This document shows, piece by piece, positions 1,367 through 35,660 of a stretch of DNA of 64,000 bases. The position numbers were made by a program, and so were the translations under genes. The notes below the pieces were generated by a model, which saw only the letters and a list, made by a program, of their open reading frames with translations, was not told the DNA's origin and made no database searches. Source of the DNA: Candidatus Methanosuratincola sp. (GTDB lineage Archaea; Thermoproteota; Methanomethylicia; Methanomethylicales; Methanomethylicaceae); NCBI GenBank assembly GCA_014361455.1, contig JACIVP010000003.1, forward strand, positions 62,001 through 126,000. The letters run 5' to 3'. Every line of letters starts with the position of its first letter. Positions within the stretch are counted from its first letter, which is position 1.

Positions 1367-1397
1367 TATATTTTAAGCTGATGAGTTAAAGGCGACT
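1367..1397 (-). promoter_or_regulatory. cheW promoter with AGTCGCC element
   Basis: On the minus strand AGTCGCCTTT (ending at 1391) is followed after 15 nt by the TATA-like AAAATATAA at 1375-1367, 33 nt before the cheW start. Element, spacing and orientation match those upstream of the other motility genes in this window. Confidence 0.55.
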
Positions 1398-1557
1398 AGC
1401 AGTCGTGGCAGTCTAAATGGTTTCGCATATTTTTAAATAATATAGGACACTTTAGTTGCCATTGATATGCCTTTTTTGATGATCAGATCGAAATACAACT
1501 TTGATGGATAATGAAATGAATAAAGATCGGTAAAGAACCGGTAAAAAGACAATTTAT

Positions 1558-1594
1558 GTCGCCATATGGTCGCCTTTTGATTATTGGTTTATAC
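1558..1594 (+). promoter_or_regulatory. MCP promoter with tandem GTCGCC elements
   Basis: Two copies of GTCGCC occur at 1558-1563 and 1569-1574, 11 bp (one helical turn) apart. The second reads TGGTCGCCTTTT. A TATA-like TTTATAC follows at 1588-1594, 13 nt after the second copy and about 35 nt before the TTG start of the MCP gene. Confidence 0.6.
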
Positions 1595-2594: not shown

Positions 2595-3070
2595 ACACCG
2601 TTGAACGACTGCAAAACACATTTTATTTCCTCTTTCTCGATCAAACCAGCATTAGACAAAAGAATTAGATAAAGTGTAATCCAAGATTAAAATGAATCTG
2701 ATATTTTACGTTATATCATACCTAAATATGTAAGTCAGGTGCTCATTAGATTTTGTTCTTGTTAAAAGGAATGGTAAAACATGTGAATTTAAAAGAAAGG
2801 TATTTTACCCACCTAAGTTATCGGAACGGTTATTGTTTATAGTCTTTTTCCTTCAAGATCACATAAACCAACAGAATAAGTTACAGTTTTTTGACTGATT
2901 TGACTCTCAAGGTTGCTCAAAGCATTCTCAAGTAAGTTCATTCTCTTCTATTTTTCAAGATTTACCTCGTAAAAGCCATTTGCCCTAGATCCTCAGGATG
3001 GTGGCATTTCATTTTGTAAACCATTGACCTTACTTTTTCTATGCTTTCCGAAACTTCATTTAGCGTGTTT
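2595..3070. other. AT-rich convergent intergenic region, no gene seen
   Basis: These 476 bases separate the converging MCP and cheA genes. They are AT-rich and hold no reading frame with recognisable similarity. I see no RNA gene or clear repeat. Confidence 0.6.
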
Positions 3071-5317
3071 CTATTTGTCTTTGGCAATTGTCATCACATC
3101 TATAACGAATGTTGGTTTTCCGTCGCCGAGTATTGCCGATCCTAGAAAACCCCTCACCTCCCTTAGGATCTTCGGAATAGGCTTCATCGCCACTTCGTCC
3201 TCATCTCGCACCTCCGACACTAGGAGACCGTAGTTCCTGCCGTCTCCCCTCTTTATTATGATCACGACGTAGGCGTTGCAGACGCCTTCGTCAATTCCAA
3301 GTAGCCAGGCAAGTCGATAGAGCCTAATCAAATTTCCCCTTAGATTTATAAAAGGCGCCCCATGAATAAATCGTATTTCCTCTTTCTTTATCTCAACTAT
3401 TTCTAAGATATCAATTACCGGTATTGCATAGAGCTGCCCGCTTGAACCGACCCCAACGATGATAACCTTCAGTGTAGCCATCGAAGCAGGGAGGCGCATT
3501 GTAATCGTTGTACCCTTTCCAACTTCCGATTTTATCGAAAGCGAACCGCCAAAAGACTCTATTTTACTCTTGACTGCACTCATGCCCATACCCCTCCCCG
3601 ATAATTCTGATACTTCTTTCTTCATTGAAAATCCAGGAACGCAGATAAGGCCCAGTGCCTCTTCGTCAGTCATACTCTCTGCCTTTTTAGAAGAAATGAG
3701 ACCCCGAATCACGGCAGTTTCCCGGACTGCCTTCGGATCTATACCTTTTCCATCATCTTCGATATTGAGTATAAAGTGGGAGGCGTCCCTTGAAGCGGAT
3801 ATTTTAATCGTTCCAACCGCAGCCTTACCAATCCTAACCCGCTCTTCTGTGGTCTCTATGCCATGATCGATGCAGTTCCTTACTATATGGACAACGGGAT
3901 CCATTATTTCTTCGAGTATCTTTCGGTCAATGGCAGTATCACCACCTTCGACGATAAGGTCTATTTCTTTACTAAGGCTCTTTGACATGTCCCTCACCAT
4001 CCTTGGGAAGATGCCAAAGACCTGCCCTATAGGCATCAGGCGAAGATTCATTACCTCGTTCTGAAGGTCAGAAACCGTCCCATCAATTAGCCTGTGCACC
4101 TCCTTTAACTCGGGCGACCCTAGCTGTTTGACTATATTGCCAAGCCGAGATTTTGCCAAAACAAGCTCTCCCGCCAGATTGAAGAGCCGATCTAGACTGC
4201 TTATGTTGACCCTGATCTCCTCAACCCTGTGCTTACCCTTGGTCGAGTCGGCCCTTATGGTTGCTGATGATTCTTCCTTACCTTGTGTCTCAAAACACGA
4301 AACGAGCTGGTCTATCTGCACTATCTTCTCTGCAAGCAAGGATTTCTCAGAAGGGACGCCCCCGTCTAGGCTGATGGGCTCGCATTTCAATTCCTTTACA
4401 CCAGGTATCCCTTTGAGAGATTCAATAAGAGACTGGATATCGTTCGTCGAGACCTCAGCTTTCACCGCATTCTCAAATTCCCCGTTTGCTAGTTGTTCGT
4501 TAGGGGGATCAGTCTGTAGGAGAACCCCATTTTCAACCAGTGTCTTTAGGATCATGAACGCCCTGACAGGGCGCAAAGGTTTTTCAATTTCGGTCAGAAT
4601 CGTTATTCTGAAGTGCCCCGCACCAGCTTTGGACTGCCCAGAATCTGAAAAAATGCCATCAAGTTCTGCAATTTTGTCGCTTGACTCGGCTGCGCTATCG
4701 GACCCGGTTCCAGTCCGGCTTTGCCCTGATTTTTCACCAAGATCGCTCCAACCCTCTGACTTGATGGGGGCGGTTTTGAGCTCAAATTCCGCTTTTTTCT
4801 CATCTTCAATTACCCTGCTCATGCTTGCATGTATCTTGCCTATTGCCTCTTCCAAGTCCTTTATCTTGGCAGTAGAAATCTTAGGTGCAAAACCATCAGA
4901 ATTGCTTTTAAGAGCCTCAGCTATCTCATGGGATTCCGGCTTAGAACTCTCAGACAGAGGACTAGAAGAAGATGGATTAGTAGAACCCGGGGTTGTAGCA
5001 GCAAAATCGTCTACCAATATGCTTATTTTATCCACATACCCTAGCAGTAAATCAATTGTGCTTGTTGAGACTGTTCTTTTTCTCTCCTTCAGATCTGCGA
5101 GTATGTCTTCGGCCTCGTGCGCCAGATCGGCTATCTTTTCTAGCCCCATCATTGCCGAATCCCCCTTTATAGTATGCATCTCTCTGAAGGCTTCGTTAAT
5201 CGCTTCACTGTCTTCTTTGTTTTTCTCGAGGTGCAAGAATATCGCGTTTAGCCTTGCTATGTGCTCCTTAACCTCCCCCAAGTAAAGCTCACGGTAGTAA
5301 CGATCTTCGTTGCTCAA
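3071..5317 (-). CDS. cheA: Chemotaxis histidine kinase CheA
   Basis: The protein has 748 residues in the standard CheA order. An N-terminal HPt domain carries the phosphorylated His48 in MHTIKGDSAMM. A CheY-binding P2-like domain lies near residues 230-320 (HFRITILTEIEKPLRPVRAF). Then come the dimerisation helices (around 370-430), the HATPase domain with N box VRNCIDHGIE and glycine boxes DDGKGID and GRGMGMSAVK, and a C-terminal CheW-like domain. It autophosphorylates under MCP control and donates phosphate to CheY and CheB. The 100-230 segment is a long low-complexity Ser/Glu linker. It lies downstream of the minD-like gene on the same strand but has its own upstream GGTCGCT element. Confidence 0.96.
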   Translation of the reverse strand: MSNEDRYYRELYLGEVKEHIARLNAIFLHLEKNKEDSEAINEAFREMHTIKGDSAMMGLEKIADLAHEAEDILADLKERKRTVSTSTIDLLLGYVDKISILVDDFAATTPGSTNPSSSSPLSESSKPESHEIAEALKSNSDGFAPKISTAKIKDLEEAIGKIHASMSRVIEDEKKAEFELKTAPIKSEGWSDLGEKSGQSRTGTGSDSAAESSDKIAELDGIFSDSGQSKAGAGHFRITILTEIEKPLRPVRAFMILKTLVENGVLLQTDPPNEQLANGEFENAVKAEVSTNDIQSLIESLKGIPGVKELKCEPISLDGGVPSEKSLLAEKIVQIDQLVSCFETQGKEESSATIRADSTKGKHRVEEIRVNISSLDRLFNLAGELVLAKSRLGNIVKQLGSPELKEVHRLIDGTVSDLQNEVMNLRLMPIGQVFGIFPRMVRDMSKSLSKEIDLIVEGGDTAIDRKILEEIMDPVVHIVRNCIDHGIETTEERVRIGKAAVGTIKISASRDASHFILNIEDDGKGIDPKAVRETAVIRGLISSKKAESMTDEEALGLICVPGFSMKKEVSELSGRGMGMSAVKSKIESFGGSLSIKSEVGKGTTITMRLPASMATLKVIIVGVGSSGQLYAIPVIDILEIVEIKKEEIRFIHGAPFINLRGNLIRLYRLAWLLGIDEGVCNAYVVIIIKRGDGRNYGLLVSEVRDEDEVAMKPIPKILREVRGFLGSAILGDGKPTFVIDVMTIAKDK

Positions 5318-5420: not shown

Positions 5421-6230
5421 TCATTTTGCCCCAGTCAGATCTATTGTTTGACTCTCAGTTGCGGTCAGCTCTATAAGTCGCTTGGCAATTTTCAATAATT
5501 GCGATGAATACGGATGCTGTGGATGATGCAGGCAGAAGACACCCCTAGACCTGTGCGAAAGTATTTCCTCGTAGAATGGAAGAATGCCTATAACCGACGC
5601 GTCGATGATCTTTGACACCTCCGAGGGCAGATCGGGGGATTCTGCGAGGTTAGGAGGGACCATGTTTAGTACGACGTAGCTGATCCTGCCGAACTTCTTC
5701 ATTATCTGACCGGTGATGTATGTCCCTGTCACATCCTGCTTGTCCATCCTCATTAGAAGGAGGCTCACATCACTTGACATTACAGCAAGAAGTGTATCTT
5801 CATTTAGACCTGGATGAGTGTCAAATATGACGTAGTCAACATTATATTCTTGACTGAGTTTCTCGGCTACGTGACGGAAGAACTTGTCGCTATACCCTTC
5901 CCGTATTACCTTCACTATCTCTTCAGGTTTCATGCTTGAACCAAGGAAGTATACGGCGCCTCGAGGCAACTTCAAGTGATTAGTTATGTCAAGAACTATG
6001 TCTTGGAAAGAACATCTGTTATAGATGTAATCATTCAATGTAAAGTTCATCATCTGGGAGGAGACGTTGTAAATTACGTGAAGACCAGGAGAGGTTATGT
6101 CCATGTCTATTGTTGCTACTCTCTTTCCCAGCGCCGCCAGAAGCACCGACAAATTTGAAGTAGTGGTGCTTTTCCCAGTTCCACCCCTGTAAGAATGCAC
6201 TACACACGTCGTAGTCATCTTTACCACCAT
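5421..6230 (-). CDS. MinD/ParA-family ATPase linked to chemotaxis genes
   Basis: This 269-residue P-loop ATPase has the deviant Walker A motif RGGTGKST (residues 15-22), the switch I segment TIDMDITSPG and a Walker B-like region VDYVIFDTHPG. It belongs to the MinD/ParA/FleN class, which forms ATP-dependent dimers that position cell structures at membranes or poles. Haloferax volcanii MinD4 is known to place chemosensory arrays and archaella at poles. The location between cheA and the MCP/archaellum genes suggests the same job here, by inference. I see no clear C-terminal amphipathic membrane-targeting helix. Its ATG overlaps the stop of the upstream coiled-coil gene (TGATG), indicating coupled translation. 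Confidence 0.85.
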   Translation of the reverse strand: MVVKMTTTCVVHSYRGGTGKSTTTSNLSVLLAALGKRVATIDMDITSPGLHVIYNVSSQMMNFTLNDYIYNRCSFQDIVLDITNHLKLPRGAVYFLGSSMKPEEIVKVIREGYSDKFFRHVAEKLSQEYNVDYVIFDTHPGLNEDTLLAVMSSDVSLLLMRMDKQDVTGTYITGQIMKKFGRISYVVLNMVPPNLAESPDLPSEVSKIIDASVIGILPFYEEILSHRSRGVFCLHHPQHPYSSQLLKIAKRLIELTATESQTIDLTGAK

Positions 6231-6448
6231 CAGTGTGAAGAGATTCGCTTTTCAAGTTTTGAAACTCTACTCTCCAGATTGTCAAGCCTGCTTGTTATAT
6301 CCTCAAGCTTGTCCTCGAATCTAGAGATCACATCCTCTACTTTGCCGGTATCGGTCTGCATCTCGGACATCATAGTCCTTAACTTCATCCTGAGCGCCGA
6401 TTCGTCCTCCTTATCCTTCAGATCCTTGCCTAAAGACGTTTGTCCCAC
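6230..6448 (-). CDS. Small coiled-coil protein coupled to the MinD-like ATPase
   Basis: The predicted protein has 72 residues. From about residue 25 it forms a continuous heptad coiled coil (VISRFEDKLEDITSRLDNLE, then SRVSKLEKRI). The gene is supported by the one-base stop/start overlap (TGATG) with the MinD-like gene and by a promoter with the shared element at the right distance. The start is GTG at 6448, close to the expected transcript start. No family is recognised. It is a plausible partner or regulator of the ATPase, like coiled-coil partners of other ParA proteins, but this is inference. Confidence 0.7.
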   Translation of the reverse strand: MGQTSLGKDLKDKEDESALRMKLRTMMSEMQTDTGKVEDVISRFEDKLEDITSRLDNLESRVSKLEKRISSH

Positions 6449-6478
6449 CCCGTACGATAGATAGAGGCACTATCCAAA

Positions 6479-6505
6479 CTATAAGCAGATTCGCATTAGG
6501 CGACC
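6479..6505 (-). promoter_or_regulatory. Promoter of the coiled-coil/minD unit with GGTCGCC element
   Basis: On the minus strand GGTCGCC lies at 6505-6499, followed after 14 nt by TTATAG at 6484-6479. The GTG start at 6448 is 30 nt beyond, implying a very short leader. It sits back to back with the promoter at 6540-6569. Confidence 0.6.
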
Positions 6506-6539
6506 GACTCTCACCAATCCAAAAACACAGGATGCAGTT

Positions 6540-6569
6540 GGTCGCCAAAATTTAATATCCATATAAAAT
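6540..6569 (+). promoter_or_regulatory. Promoter of the small gene at 6603 with GGTCGCC element
   Basis: TTGGTCGCC ends at 6546 and ATATAAAAT begins at 6561, a gap of 14 nt. The TATA-like box overlaps the first possible ATG at 6570, so translation more likely starts at the ATG at 6603. Confidence 0.6.
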
Positions 6570-6602
6570 ATGCATATAATAAGCTCAGGCAAGTGCGTTG
6601 AG

Positions 6603-6920
6603 ATGACATTTCTTGATCTGCTCGTTGATGGAGAGATAGTGATGGAAGCTATGCTAGTAGACAACTCTGACGGCGAGGAGATAATGTACAAAGGACCTAA
6701 CCTAGAGAAAAGGATAAAGGATGTCTCATTTATGATAATGGACAACCTTCCAGCGCTGAGATACATCGTGCTTGCAGTTTCCAAGAAGAAGTATGTCATG
6801 ATTGCGATAAGCGACTCGAAGTATCTTATTCTTGGAATCAATCCGAAGGTGAACTCTGAACAATTCATCCATCAGATTACAAAGTCACTTAAAGAACTTG
6901 GCCTTGAATGGCAGGATTAA
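6603..6920 (+). CDS. Small conserved-looking protein, possibly Roadblock/LC7-like
   Basis: The protein has 105 residues from the ATG at 6603. An upstream ATG at 6570 falls within the TATA region and is unlikely. Alternating strands (MEAMLVDNSDGEEIMYKG, then IVLAVSKKKYVMIAISDSKY) and a C-terminal helix resemble small Roadblock/LC7-type or profilin-like domains that act with GTPases or motility proteins. This is a fold-level guess only. It is divergent from the coiled-coil/minD unit and shares the GGTCGCC promoter element, so a motility role is likely. Confidence 0.6.
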   Translation: MTFLDLLVDGEIVMEAMLVDNSDGEEIMYKGPNLEKRIKDVSFMIMDNLPALRYIVLAVSKKKYVMIAISDSKYLILGINPKVNSEQFIHQITKSLKELGLEWQD

Positions 6921-6978
6921 ACAGATTACAGGTAAACTGTAGAAATTACGGTCCTATTTGTATGGAAAAGCGATCATC

Positions 6979-7004
6979 GGTCGCTTTTTTGCAAATTTTT
7001 ATAA
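6979..7004 (+). promoter_or_regulatory. Promoter of the ArnR-like pair with GGTCGCT element
   Basis: CGGTCGCTTTTTT starts at 6978 and is followed about 12 nt after the core by TTTATAA (6998-7004), 26 nt before the ATG at 7030. If the regulators bind this element themselves, the pair would be autoregulated. Confidence 0.5.
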
Positions 7005-7029: not shown

Positions 7030-7938
7030 ATGGTAGAAACCCTTCTGTCGCACGGAGACACGAACACTCTAGAGCAGCTTAGAAAGGTTGACGGATTGAT
7101 CGATATCTCGAAGAGCACACTACAGTTGGATATAATACTAGCCCTGAATGCAAACAATGAGCTCTCTCCGGCTGAAATAGCATCGGTGATAGGACAGAGA
7201 AGAAAAGCAGTCACAGATGCCCTCAGGAAGCTGAGAAACAAAGGACTGGTAGACACGACATTAGAAGGAGGTAAGTCGGCGAGGTATGTGCTGACTGATT
7301 CTGGAGCAGAATGCATATCGGTTATAAACCGGTGCATAGGCAACAATGGGCATGGAAAAGCAAATAACATAATTATTAATCAGGTTAAAAAAATCCCCAG
7401 CGTGAATGCCACTTCAATACAATTCGCGTCTGCGCTGTCTCAGCTGCTCTTTGCACTCGGAACCGCCAAGGGGAATGCGCTTCCGCTGAGTGAGATAGCT
7501 AGCATAATGGGCCTGAGCGAGCAGCGAACCGAGAGCTATTTGGAGTTATTCATGAAGAGCGAGCCAAGGCTCTTCAGAAGGTACACGGATGACCCCTCAT
7601 GGGTGAAGCACCTCAGGAAGCTCGGATTGAAGTTAAGGACCAAAAAACGGGAGACATTTTATGGGCTGACCCAGGAAGGGCTGCAGTACTTTTACAAACT
7701 GCCATCTTACAACCGGATCAGGCGATCCAAGTCATACAAGATGTTGAGCACGCTGACTAGGTCGAACAGCCCGAGGGAAATAGTGAAGAAACTCGGGTTT
7801 GCCGTGCTACTGGTCAGCGTGTTTTCATTTGTAACAACGTTCATGGTTTTGGATTTGCAATGGATGCTGATTATAGACATTTTGATGGTTGCAATAGGCA
7901 TACTGCTATCGCTAGATATATTCAAAGACAATATCTGA
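7030..7938 (+). CDS. Membrane-anchored double winged-helix regulator, ArnR-like (copy 1)
   Basis: The protein has 302 residues. A first winged helix covers about residues 22-90 (LSPAEIASVIGQRRKAVTDA). A short linker follows, then a second helix-turn-helix region at about 132-255 (LPLSEIASIMGLSEQRTESY). The end carries two hydrophobic segments (FAVLLVSVFSFVTTFMVL and MLIIDILMVAIGILLSL). DNA-binding domains with two C-terminal membrane helices, present as paired paralogues beside archaellum genes, are the hallmark of Sulfolobus ArnR and ArnR1, which activate the archellin promoter. Homology versus analogy cannot be settled here. Segments 7092-7299 and 7424-7794 are identical in DNA to parts of the next gene. 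Confidence 0.8.
   Translation: MVETLLSHGDTNTLEQLRKVDGLIDISKSTLQLDIILALNANNELSPAEIASVIGQRRKAVTDALRKLRNKGLVDTTLEGGKSARYVLTDSGAECISVINRCIGNNGHGKANNIIINQVKKIPSVNATSIQFASALSQLLFALGTAKGNALPLSEIASIMGLSEQRTESYLELFMKSEPRLFRRYTDDPSWVKHLRKLGLKLRTKKRETFYGLTQEGLQYFYKLPSYNRIRRSKSYKMLSTLTRSNSPREIVKKLGFAVLLVSVFSFVTTFMVLDLQWMLIIDILMVAIGILLSLDIFKDNI
7092..7299 (+). repeat. Direct repeat A, copy 1 (208 nt, identical to 8006-8213)
   Basis: Every base matches the second copy, offset by 914. It encodes the first winged-helix domain of regulator copy 1. Sequence on both sides is unrelated between the two genes. Confidence 0.95.
7424..7794 (+). repeat. Direct repeat B, copy 1 (371 nt, identical to 8464-8834)
   Basis: The segment is identical to the second copy, offset by 1040. 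It encodes the second helix-turn-helix region. Identity stops exactly at the codon before the membrane segments. Confidence 0.95.
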
Positions 7939-7952
7939 AGGAGAGCTCGGGC

Positions 7953-8990
7953 TTGGCGGATGCACTTCCCCTCAGCAATAGGCTCGCCAGGATCAGGAAC
8001 TTAAGCGGATTGATCGATATCTCGAAGAGCACACTACAGTTGGATATAATACTAGCCCTGAATGCAAACAATGAGCTCTCTCCGGCTGAAATAGCATCGG
8101 TGATAGGACAGAGAAGAAAAGCAGTCACAGATGCCCTCAGGAAGCTGAGAAACAAAGGACTGGTAGACACGACATTAGAAGGAGGTAAGTCGGCGAGGTA
8201 TGTGCTGACTGATCTCGGGATAGAGTTAGTCAAGACCCTGTTGAGCATCCTAGAGGTTTCTCCTTCGGATGAGCCGGGCAGGATAGGCGAAACGGGGGCT
8301 GTCGGGATCGGACAAGCTTTTTCTGGGTCAGAGCCAGCAGGCTTGAAAGAATCTTCAGATGGAAGGAGCCAAAGCATCCTTCATGGTAGATCCTTTCAGG
8401 AGGCGGGGCGGACTAATGGACCTCAGAATTTTACGAGGAGAATTGAGCCGGGCTCGTTCGCGCTCGCGTCTGCGCTGTCTCAGCTGCTCTTTGCACTCGG
8501 AACCGCCAAGGGGAATGCGCTTCCGCTGAGTGAGATAGCTAGCATAATGGGCCTGAGCGAGCAGCGAACCGAGAGCTATTTGGAGTTATTCATGAAGAGC
8601 GAGCCAAGGCTCTTCAGAAGGTACACGGATGACCCCTCATGGGTGAAGCACCTCAGGAAGCTCGGATTGAAGTTAAGGACCAAAAAACGGGAGACATTTT
8701 ATGGGCTGACCCAGGAAGGGCTGCAGTACTTTTACAAACTGCCATCTTACAACCGGATCAGGCGATCCAAGTCATACAAGATGTTGAGCACGCTGACTAG
8801 GTCGAACAGCCCGAGGGAAATAGTGAAGAAACTCTTATTAATTCTACTGATAAGTGAATTATTTTCACTGATAGGGATGGTAGTCCCCTTGGATCTAAGG
8901 ATCACTTCATTCTGGCTTGCTTTTACGATCCTCCTAGGGTCTGTCGCGCTGGCATCAGCCTTAATATACCGGATTGCAAACCACCTCTGA
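7953..8990 (+). CDS. Membrane-anchored double winged-helix regulator, ArnR-like (copy 2)
   Basis: The protein has 345 residues from TTG at 7953, chosen because GGAG at 7940-7943 is 9 nt upstream and directly follows the stop of copy 1. A longer open frame from 7860 would overlap copy 1. The two DNA-binding regions are identical to copy 1. The linker is longer (about 83 residues, Gly/Ser/Pro-rich). The two C-terminal membrane segments (LLLILLISELFSLIGMVVPL and FWLAFTILLGSVALASALIY) are different. The two proteins should therefore read the same DNA site but differ in membrane-proximal signalling. It is followed after 13 bp by cheB. Confidence 0.8.
   Translation: MADALPLSNRLARIRNLSGLIDISKSTLQLDIILALNANNELSPAEIASVIGQRRKAVTDALRKLRNKGLVDTTLEGGKSARYVLTDLGIELVKTLLSILEVSPSDEPGRIGETGAVGIGQAFSGSEPAGLKESSDGRSQSILHGRSFQEAGRTNGPQNFTRRIEPGSFALASALSQLLFALGTAKGNALPLSEIASIMGLSEQRTESYLELFMKSEPRLFRRYTDDPSWVKHLRKLGLKLRTKKRETFYGLTQEGLQYFYKLPSYNRIRRSKSYKMLSTLTRSNSPREIVKKLLLILLISELFSLIGMVVPLDLRITSFWLAFTILLGSVALASALIYRIANHL
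8006..8213 (+). repeat. Direct repeat A, copy 2
   Basis: Identical to 7092-7299. It encodes the first winged helix of regulator copy 2. Confidence 0.95.
8464..8834 (+). repeat. Direct repeat B, copy 2
   Basis: Identical to 7424-7794. It encodes the second helix-turn-helix region of regulator copy 2. Confidence 0.95.
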
Positions 8991-9003
8991 ACTGGTGAGG
9001 TTT

Positions 9004-10029
9004 ATGAAGAAAGTTTTGGTTGCAGACGACTCCTCCCTGATGCGCCGCCTCGTCAGCGACACACTAAGGGGAGAAGGTTTCGAAGTGCTAACTGCCTCAA
9101 ACGGGAAGGAGGCGATCGAGTTGGCAGCCAAAAACAAACCGGATGCTGCCGTCCTAGACGTTAGGATGCCAGTCATGGACGGCCTGGCTGCCCTGAAGGA
9201 ATTCGTTTCCACTGGAATTCCCACAGTCATGTTTAGCTCTCTTACCAAGGAAGACTCCCAAGTCACAATGGATGCTTTAGAGGTTGGCGCCTTCGATTTC
9301 GTCCCGAAGCCAGGAGGCACAGTCACTCTAGACATCTCAGAGGTTAGAGATGATCTGATCAGAAAAGTCAGGGCAGCTGTGATAAGCAAAAAAATTCCGA
9401 TCTTACGACCAAAGACAGGCAAGTCTGGGAGAGTTGAGGGGGTCCATGCCCCCGCATCTTCTGTACTACTCATTGCAGCATCTACGGGGGGGCCGTCATT
9501 CGTAAAGGCGTTAGTTCAGTCACTGGGCAGTGATCTTGAAGCTGCAGTCTTGATAGTTCAGCATATGCCTCCGGTCTTCACAAAATTCTTTGCTGAGAGG
9601 ATAGCATCAGGTTCGCGTATCCCGGTTAAAGAGGGGGAGGAGGGCGACGAAGTCCGCGCAGGTTTGGCGTTTCTGGCCCCTGGCGATTATCATATGGAAG
9701 TTACTTCCGACCCCGTAGCAAGGTTGTCTCTGAACAAAGGACCTAAAGTCAACTACGTCCGACCTTCCGCTGATCCTCTATTTATTTCGGCAGCAAGAAG
9801 GTTCGGCAGGAGGGTGGTGGCAGTGATTCTTTCTGGGATGGGATCGGATGCGAAGGACGGGGCGCTGGCGGTCAAGTCCTTTGGCGGGCACGTGATAGCC
9901 CAAGATGAGACAACGAGTGTAGTTTATGGCATGCCAAGAGCTGTTATCGAGGCTGGCGCGACAGACGAAGTATTGCCATTCGATGAGATACCGAAGAGGG
10001 TGAACGAAATATTAAGTCGCCTGGCATAG
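9004..10029 (+). CDS. cheB: Receptor methylesterase/deamidase CheB
   Basis: The protein has 341 residues from the ATG at 9004, which has a GGTGAGG site just upstream. An N-terminal receiver domain (VADDSSLMRR, phospho-Asp in VLDVRMP) is joined to the methylesterase domain. That domain has the catalytic Ser in AASTGGP (about residue 160), the His in QHMP (about 188) and the Asp in GMGSDAKDG (about 282). CheB-P removes methyl groups from MCP glutamates during adaptation. The matching methyltransferase CheR and deamidase CheD are not in this window. It lies 13 bp after the second ArnR-like regulator, so it is probably in that operon. Confidence 0.95.
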   Translation: MKKVLVADDSSLMRRLVSDTLRGEGFEVLTASNGKEAIELAAKNKPDAAVLDVRMPVMDGLAALKEFVSTGIPTVMFSSLTKEDSQVTMDALEVGAFDFVPKPGGTVTLDISEVRDDLIRKVRAAVISKKIPILRPKTGKSGRVEGVHAPASSVLLIAASTGGPSFVKALVQSLGSDLEAAVLIVQHMPPVFTKFFAERIASGSRIPVKEGEEGDEVRAGLAFLAPGDYHMEVTSDPVARLSLNKGPKVNYVRPSADPLFISAARRFGRRVVAVILSGMGSDAKDGALAVKSFGGHVIAQDETTSVVYGMPRAVIEAGATDEVLPFDEIPKRVNEILSRLA

Positions 10030-10228
10030 AGCAAATAAATATCAGCAAATACCAAATGGTTATATCCAAACAAGTTTTGTTCTATTACCAAATAAAACAG
10101 AAGATATTAGTTAATGTGTTTATTCCGCACCAGTACTTAAGTGGATTTCTGGATAAAACTTTGGGAAAGTAAGTCTGATCTCGCAATTCCCAGAGGGATA
10201 AGTGGCGTTCGGAGATACGGTGATGTAT

Positions 10229-10306
10229 GGTCGCCTTACAAGGCTGCAAAGTCGCCGCTGCGACGACGACCATCGCCGATGCATCTTAATATTATATACG
10301 GTCGCA
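10229..10306 (+). promoter_or_regulatory. arlB promoter region with several GTCGCC elements
   Basis: GGTCGCC occurs at 10229-10235, GTCGCC at 10251-10256 (21-22 bp later, two helical turns) and GGTCGCA at 10300-10306. The TATA-like TTATATAC lies at 10292-10299. The arlB ATG follows 34 nt after the box. Multiple copies fit a strongly controlled promoter for the filament protein. Confidence 0.55.
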
Positions 10307-10999: not shown

Positions 11000-11115
11000 G
11001 CCACCATCTTTTTATACTCCATCTCCTAATCCTCTTTTTTTAAACATGAAAAATGAATTTTTGAATTTCATAATATGGATTTTCCACATAAATCAGGGTG
11101 GTTTCAGCGTTGGCT

Positions 11116-11142
11116 GGTCGCCTTAAATAACGCTATTTAAAG
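11116..11142 (+). promoter_or_regulatory. Promoter of the arlCDE-like gene with GGTCGCC element
   Basis: CTGGTCGCCTT (core 11116-11122) is followed after 11 nt by TATTTAAAG at 11134-11142. This gives the rest of the archaellum operon a promoter of its own, separate from arlB. Confidence 0.55.
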
Positions 11143-14263: not shown

Positions 14264-14347
14264 GATCGCGTACAAACCGATTCATGGCGGCAATGACGTG
14301 GCTGATCGAAAGAGGCTGAAGGGCTGATAGAAAGAGGGCGACAGAAA

Positions 14348-16111
14348 GTGGCCAGTACATCTGCGCAAGGAAGCACATCTAGACCTGACTCAGGAATGAA
14401 CTGCAATTTGGTATACGAGTTGGGTGCAGAGTTCGGCGAGTATGCTGTAAAGGCGCCTCACCTCCACGAGTATGCACATAAAGCACGAAGCAACTCGGAA
14501 TTTGAGGGAATCCCGCTTCAGTTTAAAAAGAGCCTTTCCCAGGACCTCCGTCTCTTGAAGAAGTTCAATCTTATCTATCCTGTTTCCGACAACATATTCA
14601 TACATGTTTTCAAGGGGGCCAGGGATGCGTACGGCAGGTATTGTCCCATAGAGTCGAGGCTCCCGCCGGATAAGAAAAACCTAATCGGAAAGGCAGAGGA
14701 GCTGATCGCCTCAATTATAAATGAAGAAATCGCCCAAAAGATCGTCGAGAAACGTGAAAAGATATTAATCGAACTCTTCGAGGCGGTTGTCAAGATAGAA
14801 GGGAGCTCGACCTCGCCTTCGAAAAACAAGACCAGGATCGCTCCCTTGTTTCTTCCGAAGGAAACCTATGAACAGCTGAAATATGAGATCCTCACGGATA
14901 AGATAGGAATGGGACCGCTAGAGCCCATGATAAAAGATGTATATATAGAGGATATCTCTTGTGATGGCATAGGTCCAGTATTCTTGGAGCATAAGATATT
15001 TGGGTCGATGACCACCACAATAGAGTTTAAGAACGAAAGCGAGCTCGATTCCTTCATTGTAAAGATGTGTGAGAGGATCGGGCGACCAGTTAGCCCGAGG
15101 AGGCCGATTGTGGACGCTTCCCTCTTGGACGGGTCAAGACTGAATGTCGTTTTTGGGAACGATGTTAGTAGAAGAGGAAGCAACTTCACTATCAGAAAAT
15201 TCACAAAGATCCCACTCAGCATAACACAGCTAGTGAAGTTCGGTACACTAGATGCAAGGATGGCAGCGTATATTTGGATGATGCTCGAGTCAGGCATGTC
15301 CATCTTTATTTGTGGTGAAACGGCATCTGGGAAGACAACCACATTGAACGCAATCACAGTTTTCATCAGACCTGACGCAAAAGTCATTACGATTGAAGAA
15401 ACTCCAGAAGTATATATTCCTCACCCGAATTGGGTTAGCGAATGCAGTAGGAGTGGGGAGTCCGAAGCCTCATCGATAGAGCTTTTCGACCTGCTGAAGT
15501 CGGCACTAAGGCAGAGACCGAATTACATCATTGTTGGAGAGATCCGGAGTAAAGAAGGCAATGTGGCATTCCAAGCAATCCAGACCGGTCATCCGGTCAT
15601 CTCCACATTTCATGCAGCTTCAATGCAAAAACTGATCCAGAGGATCACTGGAGATCCCATAAATATTCCAGCGGCATATATTGATAACCTAAATGTGGTA
15701 CTTTTCCAGAGCAGCGTAAAGAGCCCTAAGACAGGGAAGTTTGAAAGGAGGGTAACGAGCATATGTGAGATAATAGGCATAGATCCAGTCGAGAAATCTT
15801 ACAACTTCATAGAGATATTTTCTTGGGATCCGATCACTGATGCGCACACTTTCAGGGGGGTCGGAAACAGCTATCTTCTGGAGTACAAGGTAGCACCCAT
15901 GAAGGGGCTGGCGCCTAAGGACGCCAGGAAAATATACAATGAGCTGGAGCTCAGAACATATATAATTAAGAAGCTCATCGAACTGAACATATTCAACTAC
16001 TATGACGTTTACAATGCCCTCTCCAAGATACACGAGAATCCGTATCTGGCGGACATGACTTTTGACAACTATACAACAAAGGCAATAGACAAGATCTTGA
16101 AAAGTGATTGA
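14348..16111 (+). CDS. arlI: Archaellum motor ATPase ArlI
   Basis: The protein has 587 residues of the type II/IV secretion ATPase family. The Walker A motif GETASGKTT lies near residues 322-331, a catalytic Glu follows in VITIEETPE, and a Walker B/His box is seen in NYIIVGEIRSKEG and TGHPVISTFHAAS. It forms the hexamer driving both archellin assembly and filament rotation with ArlJ. The start is GTG at 14348. It leaves an 84-bp gap after arlH without a gene. Confidence 0.95.
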   Translation: MASTSAQGSTSRPDSGMNCNLVYELGAEFGEYAVKAPHLHEYAHKARSNSEFEGIPLQFKKSLSQDLRLLKKFNLIYPVSDNIFIHVFKGARDAYGRYCPIESRLPPDKKNLIGKAEELIASIINEEIAQKIVEKREKILIELFEAVVKIEGSSTSPSKNKTRIAPLFLPKETYEQLKYEILTDKIGMGPLEPMIKDVYIEDISCDGIGPVFLEHKIFGSMTTTIEFKNESELDSFIVKMCERIGRPVSPRRPIVDASLLDGSRLNVVFGNDVSRRGSNFTIRKFTKIPLSITQLVKFGTLDARMAAYIWMMLESGMSIFICGETASGKTTTLNAITVFIRPDAKVITIEETPEVYIPHPNWVSECSRSGESEASSIELFDLLKSALRQRPNYIIVGEIRSKEGNVAFQAIQTGHPVISTFHAASMQKLIQRITGDPINIPAAYIDNLNVVLFQSSVKSPKTGKFERRVTSICEIIGIDPVEKSYNFIEIFSWDPITDAHTFRGVGNSYLLEYKVAPMKGLAPKDARKIYNELELRTYIIKKLIELNIFNYYDVYNALSKIHENPYLADMTFDNYTTKAIDKILKSD

Positions 16112-35518: not shown

Positions 35519-35573
35519 ATGCTCAATCCAATCCCTATAGCGTTTGTCGAAATCTGTATCAATTGGCGTATGG

Positions 35574-35660
35574 CGGGCCCGTCGGGATTTGAACCCGAGA
35601 CCAACGGGTTTCTTCGGTCTCTTAAAAGCCCGCTGCTCTACCGTACTGAGCTACGGGCCC
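35574..35660 (-). tRNA. tRNA-Lys (anticodon UUU) with 13-nt intron
   Basis: Acceptor arms GGGCCCG/CGGGCCC pair fully and the discriminator is G. Loop CTTTTAA gives anticodon UUU. A 13-nt intron (35622-35610) lies at the canonical 37/38 site. CTTT of the loop pairs with GAAG of the intron, leaving TAA and AAA bulges, as in a bulge-helix-bulge motif. The mature tRNA has 74 nt plus CCA. Confidence 0.93.

What the first reader, a model, noticed from the sequence alone, without database searches (positions are those of the whole stretch)
7030..8990. Tandem ArnR-like regulators with DNA-identical binding domains and unrelated membrane segments
Two adjacent genes share 208 nt (7092-7299 with 8006-8213) and 371 nt (7424-7794 with 8464-8834) without a single difference, while the N-termini, the linkers (124 versus 250 nt) and the two-helix membrane ends share nothing evident. 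Silent sites are also identical, so the DNA-binding parts were recently copied by gene conversion or are held identical. Both proteins should read one DNA site while taking different membrane signals. Paired membrane-bound winged-helix activators next to archaellum genes match Sulfolobus ArnR/ArnR1.
Basis: partly seen in the sequence, partly recalled or inferred. Interest (0 to 1): 0.8.

Follow-up and report, generated by a model that had tools for sequence, protein, structure and literature searches.

The report
Twin motility regulators sharing DNA readers
Two neighbouring membrane-bound switches beside the swimming genes of a Methanosuratincola-like archaeon have had their DNA-reading halves copied over each other, independently in several species, while their sensing ends stayed different, so both probably control the same motility genes in response to different cues.

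Summary
The genome is a draft of the Ca. Methanosuratincola genus. Both genes are ArnR-like regulators: two winged helices, a disordered linker and a two-helix membrane hairpin, in a likely operon with cheB upstream of the archaellum genes. Three species of the genus carry the pair. In each, the winged-helix blocks are 98-100% identical within the genome but only 64-72% between species, with silent sites near saturation. N-termini, and where testable the membrane ends, match the same-position gene of other species instead. So the duplication is older than the species and the blocks were homogenised repeatedly (concerted evolution). S. acidocaldarius ArnR/ArnR1 show the same for the first winged helix; in its sister genome, recombination through that repeat apparently deleted the archaellum operon. 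A 17-bp palindrome, GGCGAC-N5-GTCGCC, sharing the core of the published Sulfolobus ArnR box, lies in che/archaellum promoters across the family, including the regulators' own. Best reading: one reader, two sensors, maintained by gene conversion; a new variant of a known kind. Binding, signals and the conversion mechanism are inferred, not shown.

The parts
7030..7938 (+). ArnR-like regulator, gene 1 (302 aa)
   Evidence: ORF; ArnR model E 2e-23; fold
7953..8990 (+). ArnR-like regulator, gene 2 (345 aa, TTG start proposed)
   Evidence: GGAGAG at 7940-7945; ArnR model E 3e-18
7092..7299 (+). block B1, copy 1: first winged helix
8006..8213 (+). block B1, copy 2, identical to copy 1
7424..7794 (+). 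block B2, copy 1: second winged helix and pre-membrane helices
8464..8834 (+). block B2, copy 2, identical to copy 1
7300..7423 (+). gene 1 linker, predicted disordered
8214..8463 (+). gene 2 linker, unrelated to gene 1 linker
7795..7935 (+). gene 1 membrane hairpin
8835..8987 (+). gene 2 membrane hairpin, orthologous to G004 gene 2 (63%)
9004..10029 (+). cheB, likely same operon
   Evidence: CheB_methylest, Response_reg
6969..6985 (.). candidate operator upstream of gene 1 (9/12)
6499..6515 (.). candidate operator, minD / 6570-gene divergent promoter (10/12)
6530..6546 (.). candidate operator, same intergenic region (9/12)
1391..1407 (.). candidate operator, cheW / chemoreceptor divergent promoter (10/12)
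1558..1574 (.). candidate operator, cheW / chemoreceptor divergent promoter (10/12)
10219..10235 (.). candidate operator upstream of flaB (10/12)
11106..11122 (.). candidate operator upstream of flaCDE (9/12)
14337..14353 (.). candidate operator at the flaI start (11/12); overlaps the proposed GTG start at 14348
   Evidence: weak in the region test

Best explanation
The two genes are tandem, probably co-transcribed, membrane-anchored one-component regulators of the wider ArnR family. A duplication older than the genus's species gave two copies. Since then recurrent recombination between them, most simply gene conversion, has kept both winged helices and the region leading to the membrane identical within each genome, while N-terminus, linker and membrane hairpin diverged and stayed copy-specific. 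Both proteins should therefore read the same operator, for which GGCGAC-N5-GTCGCC in the che/archaellum promoters is the candidate, and could dimerise with each other, while reporting different membrane-borne cues (one reader, two sensors). Shown by sequence: identity, homogenisation, orthologous flanks, domain layout (predicted), conserved promoter palindrome. Inferred: conversion as the mechanism, binding to the palindrome, activation, heterodimers, different signals.
For: Exact repeats. Within-genome block identity 100% (window), 97.7% (G001, part present), 99.8% (G004); between species 64-72%; four-fold sites 86/86 within the window genome against 14/66 to G001. The block tree groups copies by genome and needs four changes for 'copy 1'. 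N-termini group by position (z 4.8-7.4 against at most 3.6 across), and the gene-2 membrane end is shared with G004 (z 22) while the two window hairpins are unrelated (z 1.3). Tract ends fall at the same domain borders, within about two codons, in three species. Synteny with cheB/archaellum. ArnR homology. Palindrome: 8 of 8 hits of at least 9/12 in the che/fla part lie between genes, P 6e-8; the literature-derived core is over-represented in 52 family intergenic regions, Fisher 1e-7. Parallel in S. acidocaldarius.
Against: Sites with at most one mismatch are not enriched genome-wide (9 against 12 for the reversed control), so only local clustering supports the operator; its longer form was chosen by eye from these promoters, and copies followed by T runs could be terminators. 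Pairs elsewhere (G213, G334, G009, G015) are not homogenised. The window's hairpin 1 has only a weak counterpart in G001 (z 4.9) and none in G004 (z 0.7). All genus genomes are drafts, and G004 and G020 carry frameshifts in the pair.
Confidence: 0.75

Rival explanations
1. Assembly artefact: one gene, or two clearly different genes, was given identical blocks by the assembler.
For: Draft genome of 144 contigs; the repeats may exceed short-read length; G004 shows single-base indels inside the blocks.
Against: Pairs with near-identical blocks occur in three independent assemblies of different species; G001 breaks inside the repeat as a true repeat would; S. acidocaldarius, a complete single-contig genome, shows the same pattern.
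Confidence: 0.05
2. Recent duplication in each lineage followed by fast change of N-terminus, linker and membrane end.
For: Would give identical blocks without conversion.
Against: N-termini and the gene-2 hairpin match the same-position gene of other species, so the pair predates the species; independent duplications would have to recreate them.
Confidence: 0.05
3. The DNA letters themselves are under constraint (an overlapping gene, RNA or repeat function).
For: Silent sites are identical within genomes.
Against: Silent sites are nearly saturated between species of the genus (14/66 identical).
Confidence: 0.02
4. Homogenisation is a neutral by-product of tandem repeats, with no functional meaning for a shared DNA site.
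For: Tandem repeats recombine readily; tract borders may simply be where older divergence stops pairing.
Against: The tracts end at domain borders in three species; the same block is homogenised in S. acidocaldarius although its genes lie about 8 kb apart; other separated or diverged pairs are not homogenised.
Confidence: 0.15
5. The repeats serve as recombination sites that shuffle linkers or sensors between the genes (a cassette-exchange system).
For: G004 linkers look exchanged relative to the window and G001; G096 carries a hybrid gene from recombination through the block; the G006 single gene has a gene-1-like N-terminus and a gene-2-like hairpin.
Against: The G004 exchange could be an assembler's choice between equivalent paths; the G006 layout may be ancestral; no recombinase or variants within one species were seen.
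Confidence: 0.1

Closest known systems
ArnR / ArnR1 of Sulfolobus acidocaldarius (Saci_1180 / Saci_1171)
   Same: Membrane-bound winged-helix regulators next to archaellum genes; first winged helix nearly identical between the paralogues (210 nt at 95.7%, 26/26 four-fold sites compared) with different sensing parts (PMC4307647, PMC6396743); ArnR box TCGAC-N5-GTCGA has the same CGAC-N5-GTCG core.
   Different: Here the pair is tandem with cheB rather than flanking the archaellum operon; both winged helices are homogenised; overall identity to ArnR is about 26%; the outer bases of the candidate operator are GG/CC.
Single ArnR-like genes in related archaea (for example G006, G013, G017)
   Same: Same layout and, in the family, the same place beside chemotaxis and archaellum genes.
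   Different: One copy, or a diverged second copy (G009, G015), without homogenised blocks.
EarA of Methanococcus and Pyrococcus
   Same: Transcriptional activator of archaellum genes (PMC10665913; discussed in PMC6396743).
   Different: Different binding site (TACATA repeats, PMC6396743); not compared here by sequence.
Gene conversion between tandem paralogues (general phenomenon)
   Same: Within-genome identity above between-genome identity, silent sites included.
   Different: Here confined to the DNA-binding modules of a membrane sensor pair, with borders repeated in three species.

Membership tests
ArnR-like regulators (broad family) | N-terminal winged helix homologous to ArnR | tested here: met
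   NF041016 E 2e-23 (gene 1) and 3e-18 (gene 2); profile search finds Sulfolobaceae ArnR full length
ArnR-like regulators (broad family) | two C-terminal membrane helices | tested here: met
   predicted helices 248-271 and 276-301, hydrophobic sequence; topology not measured
ArnR-like regulators (broad family) | location in the archaellum locus | tested here: met
   in the window and several relatives
ArnR equivalog (NCBIfam NF041016) | score at or above the curated cut-off of 400 bits | tested here: not met
   83 and 66 bits; S. acidocaldarius ArnR scores 452
ArnR equivalog (NCBIfam NF041016) | putative HAMP and sensory domain between winged helix and membrane, as described for Sulfolobus | tested here: not met
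   the region is a second winged helix in the model; the Sulfolobus region also looks like one, so the published description itself is in doubt
ArnR equivalog (NCBIfam NF041016) | ArnR box TCGAC-N5-GTCGA in the archaellin promoter | tested here: inconclusive
   related GGCGAC-N5-GTCGCC sites are present; the exact box is not enriched
ArnR equivalog (NCBIfam NF041016) | activates flaB transcription | not testable with these tools
   needs experiments
Concerted evolution by gene conversion | paralogues more alike within than between genomes although the duplication predates speciation | tested here: met
Concerted evolution by gene conversion | direct evidence of non-reciprocal transfer | not testable with these tools
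   needs population or laboratory data

The most novel reading that the evidence does not exclude
Archaeal motility regulators repeatedly evolve a 'one reader, several membrane sensors' design in which recombination keeps the DNA readers identical. The same repeats also shuffle sensor and linker modules and occasionally delete the whole archaellum operon, making them a recurrent route both to new inputs and to loss of motility.
Probability: 0.25. Interest if true: 0.8.

Novelty: new variant of a known kind. Interest (0 to 1): 0.6.

Why it matters
It extends ArnR-type control of archaella from Sulfolobales and Desulfurococcales (the scope stated in PMC4858521) to Methanosuratincola-type archaea that also carry chemotaxis genes, and gives a testable candidate operator and regulon. 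It is also a clear case, seen in at least two distant archaeal lineages, in which recombination maintains a shared DNA-binding specificity while sensors diverge, which makes testable how paralogous regulators avoid or exploit drifting apart in DNA recognition.

Tried and rejected
The exact Sulfolobus ArnR box (TCGAC-N5-GTCGA, up to 2 mismatches) is not enriched in the window (23 against 21 expected). GGCGAY-N5-RTCGCC with one mismatch is not enriched genome-wide. A scan of genome contigs gave one further locus only, from the G004 species. The missing half of the G001 locus was sought through cheB and not found. Recent duplication and constraint on DNA letters were rejected on flank orthology and silent-site saturation. 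Mechanical ORF calls put three of the operator sites inside spurious ORFs, so gene boundaries chosen by homology were used instead. Literature searches for archaella in Methanosuratincola/Verstraetearchaeota and for domain-limited conversion in prokaryotic regulators found no direct precedent in the held library other than ArnR/ArnR1. Whole-chain fold matches were weak; the best was SarS (E 5e-4, low TM-score).

Full report
Observation. The two repeats are present exactly as described, and the linkers are 124 and 250 nt. Gene 1 is 7030-7938. Gene 2 best starts at TTG 7953 behind GGAGAG. cheB (ATG 9004) follows 13 nt later, so gene 1, gene 2 and cheB look like one operon. No other copy exists in the 1.52-Mb draft genome. 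The nearest named relative is Candidatus Methanosuratincola subterraneus (L023); its contig has the same length as G004's locus contig (692,614), so G004 is taken to be that genome.

Surroundings. The window start holds chemotaxis genes (cheY, cheW, a chemoreceptor, cheA), a minD-like gene, a 72-aa coiled-coil gene and a conserved 116-aa gene of no recognised family. Then come the pair, cheB, and flaB, flaCDE, flaF/G-like genes, flaH, flaI and flaJ (names not backed by a family search rest on sequence and gene order). The regulator sits beside chemotaxis and/or archaellum genes in most relatives examined.

What the proteins are. AlphaFold (13-row alignment, mean pLDDT 76.5, pTM 0.60) gives two winged helices, a disordered linker (105-125) and two C-terminal helices that fit a membrane hairpin. 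Block B1 is winged helix 1; block B2 is winged helix 2 plus the helices before the membrane. NCBIfam's ArnR model matches gene 1 over residues 13-285 at E 2e-23, far below its equivalog cut-off, so the window genes are ArnR-like relatives and not ArnR in the strict sense. A profile of the family finds Sulfolobaceae ArnR over its full length. G106 is taken to be S. acidocaldarius because its single contig is 2,225,959 bp (length known from memory), it has two ArnR genes flanking an archaellum operon, and its ArnR scores 452 bits.

Concerted evolution. Of 22 genomes of the family, 10 have a related gene and four have a tandem pair: the window, G001, G004 and, in another genus, G020. Within-genome block identity is 100%, 97.7% (over the part present), 99.8% and 73.3% respectively; G020 keeps 88% over 308 nt of B2. 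Between species of the genus with a pair the blocks are only 64-72% identical. Four-fold sites are 86/86 identical inside the window genome against 14/66 to G001. In the block tree the copies pair by genome. The N-termini do the opposite: gene-1 N-termini match gene-1 N-termini (z 4.8-7.3) and gene-2 match gene-2 (z 5.8-7.4), against at most 3.6 across. The gene-2 hairpin is shared by the window and G004 (63%, z 22), whereas the two window hairpins are unrelated. The duplication is thus older than these species, and the blocks were homogenised separately in each. Tract borders fall at the same domain edges in three species. This can reflect inherited divergence of the flanks, selection to keep them distinct, or both.

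A parallel in Sulfolobus. S. acidocaldarius arnR1 and arnR share 210 nt at 95.7%, with all 26 four-fold sites of the compared part identical, confined to the first winged helix; elsewhere they are about 40-69% identical. The literature already noted the nearly identical HTH and different sensing domains (PMC4307647, PMC6396743). In the only other genome of that genus held (G096), the left flank of arnR1 runs into a hybrid gene whose start follows arnR1 and whose remainder follows arnR, then into the right flank of arnR. The two alignments overlap by 239 nt at the winged helix, and no flaJ is found. The simplest reading is recombination between the repeats with loss of the archaellum operon.

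The candidate operator. Inspection of promoters showed GGCGAC-N5-GTCGCC-like palindromes. In the window, all eight sites of at least 9/12 between 394 and 19059 lie between the chosen genes, which leave 12.5% of that stretch (P 6e-8); the flaI site overlaps that gene's proposed start. At 10/12 or better there are five in 64 kb against 1.4 expected, all in this locus. A fairer test uses only the published ArnR-box core CGAC-N5-GTCG: in 52 intergenic regions of ten genomes, 14 reach p <= 0.05 (combined 1e-7); the longer form reaches 24 (1e-20). The signal sits mainly in cheW/chemoreceptor, minD/6570-gene, 6570-gene/regulator, flaB and flaCDE promoters and is absent from most gaps inside gene runs. 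The regions are related by descent and the longer form was chosen from some of them, so these P values overstate the evidence. The site is not enriched genome-wide; one of the nine near-perfect sites in the genome lies just before the window, upstream of another chemoreceptor-like gene.

Mechanism proposed. Two co-expressed membrane-anchored regulators with the same DNA-reading and probable dimerisation parts compete for, or jointly occupy, the same operators, including one at their own promoter. Different hairpins and linkers deliver different cues. Only the sequence pattern is shown; DNA binding, activation, signals and conversion itself are inferred.

Open points. The linkers of G004 look exchanged between its two genes compared with the window and G001. 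This is either real recombination between the blocks or an assembler's arbitrary choice. G004 has one single-base indel in each gene and G020 one frameshift, either decay or consensus errors.

Second winged helix in ArnR. The region of S. acidocaldarius ArnR described as HAMP and sensory domain is predicted here as a second winged helix and matches HTH families at residues 131-163. The described sensor region may need re-examination.

Noticed in passing
L067 (G096) 2787-3605 compared with L064 (G106): Hybrid arnR1/arnR gene at the junction of the arnR1 left flank and arnR right flank; the archaellum operon between them is missing, apparently deleted through the winged-helix repeat.
   Followed up: yes
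L064:9944-10753: The ArnR region described in the literature as HAMP/sensory domain is predicted to be a second winged helix.
   Followed up: partly
L025 (G004) pair, 8298-10219: Linkers appear exchanged between the two genes relative to the window and G001, and each gene has a single-base indel in one shared block.
   Followed up: partly
L033:5061-5077 (G000:C68:60060), 1.9 kb before the window: Near-perfect candidate operator GGCGATCACTGGTCGCT upstream of another chemoreceptor-like gene.
   Followed up: partly
window 5421-6920: minD-like ATPase, 72-aa coiled-coil protein and a 116-aa protein of no recognised family, conserved together between cheA and the regulators in several relatives.
   Followed up: no
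L028:7386-8318, L030:6584-7387, L019:1489-2286: A second, diverged group of ArnR-like proteins (KGTLQ motif) in G009, G011 and G015, apparently a separate paralogue.
   Followed up: no
window 35571-35660: ARAGORN reports a tRNA with a four-base anticodon (ttaa), possibly an intron-containing or misread tRNA.
   Followed up: no
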